From positions 4,346,775 to 4,410,774 of the forward strand of contig CM075104.1 of assembly GCA_037576195.1 (NCBI GenBank): DNA of 64,000 nt. The letters are read 5' to 3'. Shown one piece after another: positions 19,619 to 59,149 of this stretch. The translations under genes were made by a program, and so were the position numbers. The notes under the pieces were generated by a model that saw nothing but the letters and a program-made list of their open reading frames with translations, searched no databases and was not told where the DNA came from. The DNA is from Phytoseiulus persimilis. Its lineage: Eukaryota; Arthropoda; Arachnida; Mesostigmata; Phytoseiidae. The stretch's first letter is position 1; each line of letters begins with the position of its first letter.

Positions 19619-19859
19619 ACGCTGGCTGGCCCGTCCCTTGCTTCGGGGGTCTACTGCTGACAGTCACACATTACCTTACATGTACAGGGTGGCTTTTTTT
19701 AAGTCGGGAATTCCCGCGCCAGATCTTGTTTCGGCCATAACTTTCTCAGTTCTTGAAATATTTCCGGAAATCGACAAGTGATCGATGGCGAATATCGGTC
19801 ATTTTGATCTGAGATTCAAATGGATATGATGAAAACTGCGGTCAGGAAATGGTTTTGAA

Positions 19860-20527
19860 GATGACCAAATTTTTACTGAGGTCTTCCTGAAAGTCATAGT
19901 GAAAACGTTAGAATTCATCCGATCGGACTCGTAGGGGTCGCGTTGGACGCGCGAAAGGTAGCCAGTCATTCGACCGAGAACCGATCGAACGCAGCGGCGG
20001 GTCAAAGCTCCGGGGTTCGGTGGGTGGACTTCGTCCCATCTTTCCTGCCATGCCGCGATCGCGGCCTTCTTGTCGAAGGGGAGCCCTTCTCTTATGGGGA
20101 TGCCGTCCATGTCGCTGGTCTCTCGAGACTCGAGTATTCTCGCTCGGAGGTCGTAGGGGATCTGCCCCGCCAGGACCTGTATTCCAAGCGTTGATGCCGT
20201 GCGGTTCGCCCGTGAAATGCCGATGCAGAGTGGTCGCTGAGTTCTGTCGAGAAGTCTCCTAGCGACCGGAGTCGAAGCTCGAAGGGCCCAGAGTGGCGCG
20301 GCATACATCATGACGCTGTCGGCAGCTGAGGCCAGTACTCGTCTCCTGAAGTCGTTTGCTCCACTGACTCTGGGAAAGAGTCTTGAGAGTGCCTGGGTTG
20401 CCTTGGTCGTCTTCGCCATCGCGTATGCCAAGTGGGCTTTCCCTGTCAGCCCGGTATCCAGAATGACGCCCAGGTACTTGACCGTGCTGGTCACCGCAAT
20501 TTGAGACTCGACGGGGTACCACCTGTT
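19860..20527 (-). mobile_element. Non-LTR retrotransposon ORF2 C-terminal fragment (R1/LOA-like)
   Basis: One open minus-strand frame begins WYPVESQIAVTSTVKYLGVILD and continues through the thumb/post-RT region, ending near WQERWDEV (about 20025-20050). YLGV.LD and WQERWD are signatures of R1/I-group LINE reverse transcriptases. The catalytic palm (motifs A-C) is missing, so this is a truncated copy. Its 5' side stops abruptly at the 45-bp tandem array that starts at 20528. The frame is open for more than 200 codons, so this copy is younger than the fragment at 19216-19600. Confidence 0.75.
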
Positions 20528-54886: not shown

Positions 54887-57091
54887 ATGACGTCGCTCGT
54901 TCAAGAGCACCTCGTCTATCGAGGCATAATGCACGGTCATAACGGATGGGTCACTCAGATCGCCACCAACCCCAACTATCCCGAAGTGATCCTGTCTTCA
55001 TCTCGAGGTATGTTTCCCGTCTCGACTACCGCCGAAATCCCGGGTTGCTGACAGCGTGTGACAGACCGGAGAGCACAGATCGATCGCGACGACGACGTCC
55101 GCGAGGAAACTCGAGAAGGAGTGATTATAACGTCCGTTTAAAGGCCCCGTGTGTTGTTTTCGAATGTTGTGAGGGCTGCACACGTTGCCCCGCTCGCCAC
55201 GGAGCTCGGCCGCAGCTGCAACATCGCGGCTCCTGCCGCGGATTCGCCGGAGGCCGAGCTCGACCCGTGGCGCTTAACATATGGACGAGTCGTGATTGCC
55301 AAGGTGTCCAGTCCCAGTCCTGCAAGTCGTGAATGAGGATCGCCCATCCAAGCGGATAGGCTAACGGGAAATCATAGAAGCTGACGATATGACTGGAACT
55401 CGGAGCCGGGGGCGAAATCATTCTGACTGTGACCTCGATAATTCCAGACAAGACCCTGATACTCTGGGATTTGAAACGCGAAGAGGGATGCTACGGAGTT
55501 CCCAAGAGGCGTCTGCATGGCCACGGACACTTCGTTACCGATGTTGTCATGTCATCTGATGGACATTACGCACTCTCCTGCTCCTGGGATAAGCATCTCC
55601 GCCTGTGGGATCTGAACGCCGGCAAGAGCACTCGCCGTTTCGAAGACCATAAGAAAGACGTTCTCTCCGTTGCTTTCTCGGCCGACAACAGACAGATCGT
55701 TTCCGGGTCCCGCGACAAAACCATCAAGGTAATTCAGCTTTTATGTCGCTATTCCGCGGGGATTCACCCGACATGACATAAGGAGATCATCTCACATATT
55801 GATGAGTTTGCAAGGATTCGCCTCGTCATGAGATGGCTTCAACGAAACTGCTTGCGGACAGCACAGTTCCGGAAGCGCGGGCTGCGACGCCGATGAGCCT
55901 AGAGGCGTGGCATGATGATTTTTTCACAACTCCTAACGGTCTTCAGTGAACGACTGCGGAGAACAAACTTCACACAATGCATCTGATACTTATTGACCAT
56001 TGAGATCAGATGACACACTGTGGCAAGAGAACCCGGCTCCTGATCCTGAGTTTTCTTTTACAGCTGTGGAACACTCTCGCTCAGTGTAAGTACACCATCG
56101 TCGAAGATGGACACGAACATTGGGTGTCTTGCGTGCGATTCTCGCCCAACAACACCAACCCCGTCATCGTCTCCTGCGGCTGGGATCGTGTAGTTAAGGT
56201 CTGGAACCTCGCAAACTGCAAGCTCAAGACCAACCACCGTGGTCACAAGAGGTACCTGAACACCGTCACTGTCTCCCCCGATGGTTCTCTCTGTGCCTCT
56301 GGAGGCAAGGTCAGTACATCAATTGTTTCCTTTCGGACTCGAGTTGGCTCCAGACTCGCATTCCGTCACTTCGTCGAATCTTGAATTCACATGATGACTA
56401 ATTCACAACGCTGAAGCCCTCGGGTTCATGTGGTTTTTCCACAAATTTCTGATTCTTCTTCACGCTTCGGTTCTTGCGCGCCAAGTTCCGAATGAGCTCC
56501 TCCCTCACTGCTCAATTTCTTTTCCAGGATGGTCTCGCTATGCTCTGGGACTTGAACGAGGGCAAACACCTTTACACCCTCAACAACAAGAAGGAGTCCA
56601 GCAGCATCAACACACTCTGCTTCTCCCCCAACAGATACTGGCTTTGCGTTGCCAACGGAGGAGGCATCAATGTCTGGGTGAGCACTTCTTTTCCCCCAAT
56701 GTTTCCTGTCGCAACGATTGGTCGAGTGCGAATTTCCTCACCGACCGTTGAGGAAGCGCCGAATGATGAACGAAAAATACACATTCAACAGCTGATACCA
56801 TTGAAGATAAATTTTTCATCTGACAAGCCACTTCCTGAGGAAGTACTGCATATTGAAGGGTGAACTGCGAGGGAGCTGCGATAAACTCAAATTTTCCCTC
56901 CGCAGGACTTGGAGAACAAGCGTCTCGTGGATGAGCTGAAGCCTGAACTCGTCTGCAACAACAACACCAAGAATAAGAGCAGCGAATGTATCTCTCTAGC
57001 GTGGGCTCCCGATGGCCAAACCCTCTTTGCCGGTTACACGGATAACTCGATTCGTGTCTGGCAGGTCAGTGTGAAGCAGTCTACTGCCTAA
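54887..57091 (+). CDS. Rack1: RACK1 (receptor for activated C kinase 1), five exons, complete
   Basis: Seven-bladed WD40 propeller of the 40S ribosomal subunit head that also scaffolds PKC and other kinases. Exons: 54887-55007, 55448-55728, 56064-56309, 56528-56677 and 56906-57091; GT-AG throughout, phases 1,0,0,0; 327 residues (human 317). Motifs in order: [17 protein letters not shown] (the R-x-K ribosome contact, Arg40/Lys42), [131 protein letters not shown]. Blade 6-7 has a longer loop ([10 protein letters not shown]), explaining much of the extra length. A TTTAACAG acceptor-like site lies just before the start codon, so a 5' UTR intron is possible. Introns 2-4 contain snoRNA-like elements. 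Confidence 0.98.
55907..55991 (+). ncRNA. Candidate C/D box snoRNA in RACK1 intron 2
   Basis: Box C ATGATGA at 55912-55918 and box D CTGA at 55983-55986, 75 nt end to end; box D lies 77 nt before the 3' splice site (56063). A C'-like GTGAACG is near 55947. The bases after box C (TTTTTTCACAACTC) resemble those in the intron 3 candidate. The terminal stem is weak, which lowers confidence. Confidence 0.5.
56386..56457 (+). ncRNA. Candidate C/D box snoRNA in RACK1 intron 3
   Basis: Box C ATGATGA at 56391-56397, D' CTGA at 56411-56414 and box D CTGA at 56449-56452 (62 nt from C to D). Box D is 75 nt before the 3' splice site at 56527. The possible D' guide is CTAATTCACAACG. No strong terminal stem is apparent. 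Confidence 0.55.
56751..56836 (+). ncRNA. Candidate C/D box snoRNA in RACK1 intron 4
   Basis: Box C ATGATGA at 56763-56769, D' CTGA at 56792-56795, C'-like TTGAAGA at 56801, and box D CTGA at 56820-56823, 82 nt before the 3' splice site (56905). An external stem AGGAAG (56751-56756) / CTTCCT (56831-56836) can close the structure. Possible guides precede D' (ACACATTCAACAG) and D (AAATTTTTCAT); target rRNA sites are not assigned. Confidence 0.6.
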
Positions 57092-57130
57092 AAAATCGTG
57101 CCCTCAGATCGTGCGATTGACGTGCTGGAA

Positions 57131-57136
57131 AATAAA
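57131..57136 (+). terminator. Rack1: RACK1 poly(A) signal
   Basis: AATAAA lies 40 bp after the stop codon, giving the very short 3' UTR usual for RACK1 and other ribosomal-protein-class mRNAs. Confidence 0.8.
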
Positions 57137-57139
57137 ACA

Positions 57140-59149
57140 AAACTCCAGAAACTTGCGACGTCATTTCTCCAACTATTAGCGTAGCCTTCAATACCTGGAA
57201 TTATATACTCAAAGAGCTGCATCAGCCACTCTCAAGGTCGATCATGCTTCCGTGATGCGAATGCGAACGATTTGCCGCGTTGGATCGCGAGGTGGAATAT
57301 AGAAACCATCGAACACTGAGTAGGCTACATCGGTTTCAAACTTCCTGAGAAACTCGGTGTTGCCTTTGTGATTCCACCCAGACGTGCGAAGTCTTCCGCA
57401 AACTTTGCGAGGAACGCTAGACCGTTATTTTCTTGCAAGAGGCTGTTCGAGATCAGAGGAGCAGGATTGACAGATGACACGGTTTCCACAGGTTTGGTAG
57501 AGGAAACCTTTGCGGGGTTTTGATTAAGTGGCGCTTCCGTTGGATTCGAAACCCTCAGTTATTTCTACCGGTTCTAGAGACTAGATCGGCCATCTGGCGC
57601 CGGAGTACTCCGTCTGGTACCGGAGCGCTATTCTAGAAGAAGTATCAATATGTTATGTGATGAGCTCCCTCTACACCTGTCATCCCCTTAGGTGTCCCAA
57701 TGAGGCATAACATTGGAAAGGCTGTCAGCTCATATCGTATCTCGCTACACTCCGAATTATTGCGTTGAGGTACGTTTTTCTCCCTCTGAGAGCTGAAATC
57801 TATTGACGCTCTTCGATGGTCTACGAGAATACAACTGGAGGTTGTGGTTGTCTCATTGGGAAGGGAAGATGGTCATGGTGATGATTATGATGAGAAAAAT
57901 ACGGGGAAGGGATCATGACGTGTCTGTCATCTCGTACTGTCATGCTTGTTTCACGGACTTCAAACATGGATCGGTTTCAGAACGTGTTCATTTAGACCAC
58001 TAACCTTCGGTTCTCTCCCTATGCCACTGTCTGCATCGCTCTCACCGCAGAAGGACGGAGAAGGCTGCCCACTCGCAAGCTTGAGCACCGCAAACAACTG
58101 GATCCTGATTTTAGGGCTCCTCACAGGTCTCACGAAGCCAGACGCCCCTCTCAAAGTTTTTATCTCGAACTTGGTACACTAATGGTTGTCAAAAAGACTC
58201 TCGATCTCCCCTAACTCTCCGACGCTTCCGGTCAGGACGTGTGGTACGCGAGAGGCTCAGGCAAACCTCTTGGGGCCCTCTTTCGAGCGTGGGCCGGAAG
58301 CTCTCCTCTGCATCGATGACTGACAGACCGCATTAGGTTATGGCCCCCATCTTGTTGGCTCATACGGTCTCGATTCCGCTCCAAAATGCAGTGCGTTATC
58401 GAGGTTCGCCGCCGCGAGGCAAATTGAGCTGATCGCCGTCCCAACCTCTCCTCAAACTGACGCTGGGCAGGCGCTGACTTCTCCTGATTTCCCGTTCGGA
58501 GAGGAATAGCACACAGAGATTGACAGTCTGGCGCTGGTTTTTGATTGTGGCGCCTGAAGTCGCCGATGACCCGCAATCAACTCCTACGTCCGCGAGAAGC
58601 GTTTCGAGAGAACCATTCATGTTTTAGGCGGCTGTGTTGTACTTGTTCAATGGGTCGATGGTGAGGATATGTCGAGCGATATGATATCGGAGTGCTCGAG
58701 TCGAACGGAAACACAAATTCTCTCCGAATCCAGTTCCAGATGGAGGATATCGATCCTGGATGCCAGGGATAGGGTTCTGGATTAGTCCACAGTCATTTTC
58801 AGCCAATTAGAGAGCGAAAGGTCTCGGGATACACGTTGAAAGCTTCTCTCTTCGAGATCGAACTGCGAGACGGCGCCGGAGAATTCGGTTTATTCAAGAA
58901 ATATCGATCAGATGACTCATTCAGGGCAGGCGCCTACTATATTTGATCAATGCTGAAGCGCTTCGCGAATTCAGCGCAGCGATCAGCCCCACGGGCGTCA
59001 TCACAAGTTGAGAGGCATGGAAACAATAATCCAACGGGGGAGAATTCTCAATGCGATTCCTCGGACGGCCGATCGGCTCTGAACATCAGGGGCTCGGAAG
59101 AGAATCCTCGTAGGAAAATTCTGTGTGTACACGTACTAAAAGTTGAACA
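57140..59149. other. No gene recognised 3' of RACK1
   Basis: No domain or repeat array is recognisable. The minus frame at 58232-58576 is Arg-rich and overlaps another open frame. Confidence 0.4.

What the first reader, a model, noticed from the sequence alone, without database searches (positions are those of the whole stretch)
55729..56905. Three consecutive RACK1 introns each carry a C/D box snoRNA candidate
Introns 2, 3 and 4 are 335, 218 and 228 bp. Each holds an exact ATGATGA and a CTGA 61-75 nt later, and in all three the CTGA ends 75-82 nt before the 3' splice site. Intron-encoded C/D snoRNAs are known to sit about 70-80 nt upstream of the 3' splice site, and vertebrate RACK1 also hosts C/D snoRNAs (SNORD95, SNORD96). 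Three exact 7-mers in under 800 bp at the same relative position is very unlikely by chance. The guide regions do not look like human SNORD96, so these may be lineage-specific snoRNAs.
Basis: partly seen in the sequence, partly recalled or inferred. Interest (0 to 1): 0.72.

Follow-up and report, generated by a model that had tools for sequence, protein, structure and literature searches.

The report
Probable C/D snoRNAs in RACK1 introns
Three neighbouring introns of a ribosome-associated gene each carry the short signature motifs of C/D box small nucleolar RNAs at the expected place, which is unlikely to be chance, but no rRNA target, conservation or expression has been shown, so they are probable ordinary members of a known kind.

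Summary
The window encodes a 327-aa RACK1 with four introns. Introns 2, 3 and 4 (335, 218, 228 bp) each contain an exact ATGATGA and a CTGA that ends 77, 75 and 82 nt before the 3' splice site; intron 1 has no such C box. In the window, both strands, five ATGATGA boxes are followed by CTGA at 45-70 nt, and three of the five are these. Simulated chance for the three introns is 6e-7 to 3e-10. C/D box snoRNAs are the best reading: strongest for intron 4 (C, D', C'-like, D, possible external stem), weaker for intron 3, weakest for intron 2. Not proved: no Rfam match above threshold, no stem next to the boxes in any candidate, no guide that beats shuffles on conserved rRNA or snRNA, no other copy found in the genome, no relatives to compare. 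Intact rDNA was not found in the assembly, so real targets could not be tested; one lead against a degenerate 18S copy is marginal. Human RACK1 hosts C/D snoRNAs U95 and U96A, so this is a probable new member of a known kind.

The parts
54887..57091 (+). RACK1 coding region, five exons, four introns (host gene)
   Evidence: Joined exons translate to 327 aa without an inner stop; matches RACK1/GNB2L1 chains in the PDB, mostly over residues 7-322; AATAAA in the stretch after the stop codon
55729..56063 (+). Intron 2, 335 bp
   Evidence: GTAATTCA...TTTTACAG, phase 0
55912..55986 (+). C/D candidate 1 (weakest): C box 55912-55918, D box 55983-55986; no exact D' box
   Evidence: no adjacent or external stem above chance; the CTGA lies in the arm 55980-55987 of a perfect 8-bp inverted repeat with 56005-56012, inside a hairpin of z -4.81
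56310..56527 (+). Intron 3, 218 bp
   Evidence: GTCAGTAC...TTTTCCAG, phase 0
56391..56452 (+). C/D candidate 2: C box 56391-56397, D' 56411-56414, D box 56449-56452
   Evidence: only a 4-bp external match TGAA/TTCA, within chance
56678..56905 (+). Intron 4, 228 bp
   Evidence: GTGAGCAC...CTCCGCAG, phase 0
56763..56823 (+). C/D candidate 3 (best): C 56763-56769, D' 56792-56795, C'-like TTGAAGA 56801-56807, D 56820-56823; a further CTGA at 56835
   Evidence: four sub-threshold alignments to C/D families (E 4 to 9.2)
56751..56756 (+). 5' arm AGGAAG of a possible external stem
   Evidence: 6 bp with 56831-56836, 6 and 7 nt away from the boxes, P 0.05 against shuffled flanks; cofold of flanks -9.5 kcal/mol, 6.6% of 2000 random window positions as stable
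56831..56836 (+). 3' arm CTTCCT of the possible external stem
   Evidence: As above; this arm can also pair locally, 56830-56836 with 56838-56844

Best explanation
Introns 2-4 of this RACK1 gene each encode a box C/D snoRNA of about 60-85 nt. Proposed path: RACK1 is transcribed and spliced; while the intron is in the spliceosome, Snu13/15.5K binds the kink-turn made by boxes C and D, Nop56/58 and fibrillarin join, the lariat is debranched and exonucleases trim back to the bound RNP; the stretch upstream of D or D' then guides 2'-O-methylation. Shown: the boxes, their order, strand, spacing and position before the 3' splice site, and their rarity. Inferred from established snoRNA biology: transcription as small RNAs, RNP assembly, target and methylation. 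The confidence given is for at least two of the three being processed C/D RNAs; for all three I put it at about 0.5.
For: Three of the five C-D box pairs of the window, both strands, are these; simulated chance 5.8e-7 to 3.1e-10. The D boxes end 77, 75 and 82 nt before the 3' splice site, broadly in line with the reported preference of mammalian intronic C/D snoRNAs for a place some 40-50 nt upstream of the branch point (passages of PMC8162545, and PMC10234308); branch points were not mapped here. Exact D' in introns 3 and 4 and a C'-like box in intron 4 (read). All three pairs lie on the host's sense strand. Human RACK1 hosts U95 and U96A (passages of PMC3941584).
Against: No stem next to the boxes in any of three candidates (best helices within 2 nt are 3, 1 and 1 bp), while a stable terminal stem is reported for most expressed human C/D snoRNAs. 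No guide clearly beats shuffles on conserved rRNA/snRNA sequences (32, 26, 37, 6 and 12 of 40 shuffles as good). No Rfam hit at gathering threshold in the window; lower hits have E 1.4-9.2. No other copy found in the genome. The intron-2 D box lies in a strong hairpin, the intron-3 C box overlaps a 7-bp inverted repeat, and in intron 4 the two guide stretches are 76% complementary to each other over 17 nt. The same paper finds most expressed human intronic snoRNAs farther from the branch point than the supposed optimum, so the position rule is loose. No conservation or RNA evidence.
Confidence: 0.72

Rival explanations
1. Only the intron-4 element (and perhaps intron 3) is a C/D snoRNA; the intron-2 box pair is a chance match inside a structured intron.
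For: Intron 4 alone has C, D', C'-like and D plus a possible external stem. Intron 2 has no exact D', no stem above chance, and its CTGA lies in an 8-bp perfect inverted repeat; the whole intron folds better than 100 of 100 shuffles (z -3.35).
Against: The intron-2 D box sits at nearly the same distance (77 nt) from the 3' splice site as the others, and its configuration has a simulated chance of 0.0073 or less. Hairpins of that strength are not rare here: 78 of 4099 64-nt windows of similar G+C fold at -18 kcal/mol or better.
Confidence: 0.25
2. All three are chance: the reader picked the most striking of many possible coincidences in 64 kb.
For: No stem next to the boxes, no convincing guide, no Rfam match. 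The word RTGATGA is somewhat common in the window.
Confidence: 0.12
3. The introns carry another structured RNA, for example microRNA-like hairpins in intron 2.
For: Hairpin 55962-56025 has z -4.81 (0 of 200 shuffles) and its 3' arm begins TGAGATCA, which I recall as the start of the bantam microRNA; a second hairpin at 55780-55845 has z -2.79 (3 of 200 shuffles).
Against: The stem is short (about 19 bp) without an evident basal stem; windows as stable make up 78 of 4099 (1.9%) of those of similar G+C; Rfam gives no microRNA match in intron 2 at E up to 10. Does not account for introns 3 and 4.
Confidence: 0.04

Closest known systems
Human SNORD95 (U95) and SNORD96A (U96A) in RACK1/GNB2L1
   Same: C/D box candidates inside introns of the same host gene; U95 in intron 1 and U96A in intron 2 of human RACK1 (PMC3941584 passages)
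   Different: Here introns 2, 3 and 4 of a four-intron gene; neither family is among the Rfam matches listed. The U96A guide for 5.8S that I recall was not seen by eye in these introns; no separate test was computed. Intron homology between the two genes was not tested.
Intron-encoded box C/D snoRNAs lacking a 5',3'-terminal stem (Darzacq and Kiss 2000; only the title seen, in reference lists)
   Same: Boxes C and D not joined by an adjacent helix; intron 4 has a possible external stem 6-7 nt away
   Different: No processing evidence; introns 2 and 3 lack even an external stem above chance
Box C/D guide snoRNAs with D' and C' boxes in general
   Same: C, D', C'-like, D order in intron 4; C, D', D in intron 3
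   Different: No demonstrated guide-target duplex on conserved rRNA

Membership tests
Box C/D snoRNA | C box RUGAUGA and D box CUGA in order on the sense strand, at the spacing of a 60-100 nt RNA | tested here: met
   Exact in all three introns
Box C/D snoRNA | Terminal stem next to the C and D boxes (usual, but not in every accepted member) | tested here: not met
   Best helix within 2 nt of the boxes: 3, 1 and 1 bp. Cofold of 15-nt flanks -7.7, -1.8, -9.5 kcal/mol, with 16%, 91% and 6.6% of 2000 random positions as stable; the intron-2 value includes a hairpin within one flank. PMC3542256 says 60% of its predicted Entamoeba C/D RNAs had the stem and the rest lacked it or had an external or internal stem, so I do not treat it as strictly defining
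Box C/D snoRNA | D' and C' boxes | tested here: inconclusive
   Exact D' in introns 3 and 4, C'-like TTGAAGA in intron 4, neither clear in intron 2
Box C/D snoRNA | Guide of about 10 nt or more next to D or D' complementary to rRNA or snRNA | tested here: inconclusive
Intron-4 D' guide forms 12 contiguous pairs with a degenerate 18S copy of the same genome, 2 of 300 shuffles as good, but 10 of 300 control 18-mers do as well. Intact rDNA was not found in the assembly
   77, 75, 82 nt; the passages seen speak of 40-50 or about 50 nt upstream of the branch point, which was not mapped here
Box C/D snoRNA | Stable small RNA bound by fibrillarin, Nop56/58 and Snu13 | not testable with these tools
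   No RNA data available
SNORD95 / SNORD96 (Rfam) | Match to the family's covariance model | tested here: not met
   Not among matches at gathering threshold over the window, nor at E up to 10 over 55000-58100 or intron 2
MicroRNA precursor (intron-2 hairpin) | Stem of about 33 bp with a basal stem (recalled), or a known family | tested here: not met
   About 19 bp, no evident basal stem, no Rfam microRNA match

The most novel reading that the evidence does not exclude
RACK1 has been recruited as a C/D snoRNA host separately in this arthropod lineage and in vertebrates, with three consecutive introns carrying fast-evolving or orphan C/D RNAs that lack terminal stems and rely on splicing-coupled assembly at a fixed distance from the 3' splice site; at least one may guide methylation of a lineage-specific position in 18S.
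Probability: 0.25. Interest if true: 0.45.

Novelty: new member of a known kind. Interest (0 to 1): 0.3.

Why it matters
They would let one ask whether RACK1 is an ancient snoRNA host in animals or was recruited repeatedly. The similar distance to the 3' splice site in all three introns would also suggest that splicing-coupled assembly, described in mammals, operates here. As a discovery it is modest: intronic C/D snoRNAs in ribosome-related genes are an established arrangement.

Tried and rejected

Copies in the own genome: a search with the three candidates returned only the query places; its first look passed one candidate. A search with the whole stretch also returned itself only.

rRNA of the own genome: the LSU and SSU family searches gave no answer. 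The 5.8S family, patterns and a search with L017 found one degenerate rDNA copy on C2, an 18S piece on C82 and a 28S piece on C3. A eukaryotic rDNA contaminant in a bacterial MAG (L017) served as a real but distant rRNA. L017 gave a 14-position match with a break for the intron-2 guide; I left it aside because by my judgement it lies in a variable part of that rRNA.

Positive controls: an RPL7A-like gene (L033, so named by my reading) has no exact RTGATGA on either strand of its locus, so it could not serve. SNORD14 search: best hit 26.8 bits, under the 64-bit cut-off; not used as proof of anything.

MicroRNA-like hairpins in intron 2 were considered and set aside. An H/ACA reading of intron 2 was tried by eye: in the predicted fold the two upstream hairpins leave no unpaired hinge box, so rejected.

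Literature: nine searches, of which I saw listings and abstract starts, showed no title that reports snoRNAs in a RACK1 gene of a mite, tick or insect; the library holds open-licence papers only. Five papers were seen in passages, none in full.

Full report
What is there. The stretch lies in a RACK1 gene on the plus strand (coding 54887-57091). Its five exons join into 327 codons without an inner stop, and the protein matches RACK1/GNB2L1 chains in solved structures over nearly its whole length (34 distinct sequences at E up to 1e-100). There are four introns, at 55008-55447, 55729-56063, 56310-56527 and 56678-56905. That the organism is a mite was not tested; the window's own genome is held as 181 Mb in 127 contigs without a name.

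The boxes. Each of introns 2-4 holds one exact ATGATGA (55912, 56391, 56763) and a downstream exact CTGA (55983, 56449, 56820) whose end is 77, 75 and 82 nt before the 3' splice site. The gaps between the boxes are 64, 51 and 50 nt. Introns 3 and 4 also hold an exact internal CTGA (56411, 56792) placed as a D' box. Intron 4 has TTGAAGA at 56801-56807 placed as a C' box (read) and a further CTGA at 56835, 67 nt from the splice site. Intron 2 has two more CTGA close to its 3' end (56040, 56046), too near the splice site to fit. Intron 1 has no ATGATGA or GTGATGA.

Chance. RTGATGA as a word is only slightly over-represented in the window (37 seen, 26.1 expected, 2 of 100 shuffles as many). The configuration is rare. 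Over both strands five ATGATGA boxes are followed by CTGA at 45-70 nt, and three of the five are these three. Ten other loci of the same genome that I held, 89,874 bases counting both strands, gave 2 such pairs. Taking the two other boxes of the window as the background rate, about one per 64 kb of strand, my arithmetic gives about 6e-8 for one in each of the three introns. Markov simulations that also require the distance to the intron end give 5.8e-7 with a model trained on the introns themselves and 3.1e-10 with one trained on the window. The bounds were set after seeing the data, so these figures are optimistic, but a large correction still leaves a clear excess.

Stems and folds. C/D snoRNAs usually have a short helix next to the boxes. 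None of the three has one: the best helices within 2 nt of the boxes are 3, 1 and 1 bp. Allowing larger gaps, intron 4 has a 6-bp external stem AGGAAG/CTTCCT (P 0.05 against shuffled flanks); introns 3 and 2 have 4-bp matches within chance (P 0.28 and 0.57). Cofolding of the 15-nt flanks gives -7.7, -1.8 and -9.5 kcal/mol; 16%, 91% and 6.6% of 2000 random window positions are as stable, and the intron-2 value includes a hairpin within one flank. In human, most expressed C/D snoRNAs have a stable terminal stem (passages of PMC10234308), so this counts against. In Entamoeba, 60% of predicted C/D RNAs had it and the rest lacked it or had an external or internal stem (passage of PMC3542256), so it is not fatal. 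The candidates themselves fold no better than shuffles (z -0.10 to -1.42 with or without flanks). In intron 2 the CTGA lies in an 8-bp perfect inverted repeat within a hairpin of z -4.81, and the whole intron has z -3.35; but hairpins of that energy are not rare here, 78 of 4099 windows of similar G+C. The intron-3 C box overlaps a 7-bp inverted repeat, and the two guide stretches of intron 4 are 76% complementary to each other over 17 nt.

Guides. So no conserved target is evident. Intact rDNA was not found in the assembly: the 18S end is found once, in a degenerate copy on C2, a conserved 28S word not at all, and a search with a foreign rDNA gave only that copy and short pieces on C82 and C3. 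Against the degenerate copy six guides were tried (the five and the one before the second CTGA of intron 4). One stands out: the intron-4 D' guide forms 12 contiguous pairs (11 Watson-Crick, 1 G-U), starting next to the box, with CTGTTGGATGTG in the 18S part. 2 of 300 shuffles reach its score, but 10 of 300 arbitrary 18-mers taken upstream of CTGA in the window do so too, and the same guide also fits a second place in the 28S part of that copy nearly as well. With six guides tried this is a lead, not a result.

Families and copies. Rfam gives no match at gathering threshold in the window and only weak matches at E 1.4-9.2 in these introns; neither SNORD95 nor SNORD96 is among them. How sensitive Rfam is for this lineage is not known: the SNORD14 model gave at best 26.8 bits against a cut-off of 64. 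No other copy of the candidates was found in the genome.

Comparison. In human, U95 lies in intron 1 and U96A in intron 2 of RACK1 (passages of PMC3941584). Mammalian C/D snoRNAs are said to assemble best about 50 nt upstream of the branch point (passages of PMC8162545, and of PMC10234308), though the latter paper finds that expressed human intronic snoRNAs mainly lie farther away than that. The original position study (Hirose and Steitz 2001) is not held and is known to me only through those passages and recall. The present elements fit this arrangement without matching a known family.

Verdict. The motif cluster is real and a poor candidate for chance. The simplest mechanism is that these introns encode C/D snoRNAs, most likely in intron 4, probably in intron 3, less surely in intron 2. 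Expression, RNP assembly, target and conservation remain inferred.

Noticed in passing
window 55962-56025 and 55780-55845: Two strong hairpins in RACK1 intron 2 (z -4.81 and -2.79). The 3' arm of the first begins TGAGATCA, which I recall as the start of bantam; hairpins of this energy are not rare in the window.
   Followed up: partly
L003/L004 (G000:C2, about 44.365-44.370 Mb), L006 (G000:C82, about 81 kb), L025 (G000:C3, about 363 kb): A degenerate rDNA copy (18S, 5.8S and part of 28S recognisable but heavily mutated) and pieces of 18S and 28S elsewhere; no intact rDNA unit was found in the assembly.
   Followed up: partly
L041 1501-1590 (G000:C1:22900468-22900557): A SNORD14-like stretch (26.8 bits, below the cut-off of 64) whose ACATTCGCGGTTTCCA resembles the U14 guide for 18S as I recall it; the matching 18S word was not found in L004 or L017. 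A tRNA-like stretch with GGTTCGAACCCC lies just upstream (ARAGORN calls no tRNA) and a TTTT follows.
   Followed up: partly
L017: A contig of a Flavobacteriales MAG (JAESRW010000139.1) carries eukaryotic rDNA, evidently contamination.
   Followed up: no
window 19826-19890 (+): Another ATGATGA...CTGA pair; its surroundings look, by eye, like a stretch also seen in L042, so it may lie in a dispersed repeat.
   Followed up: no
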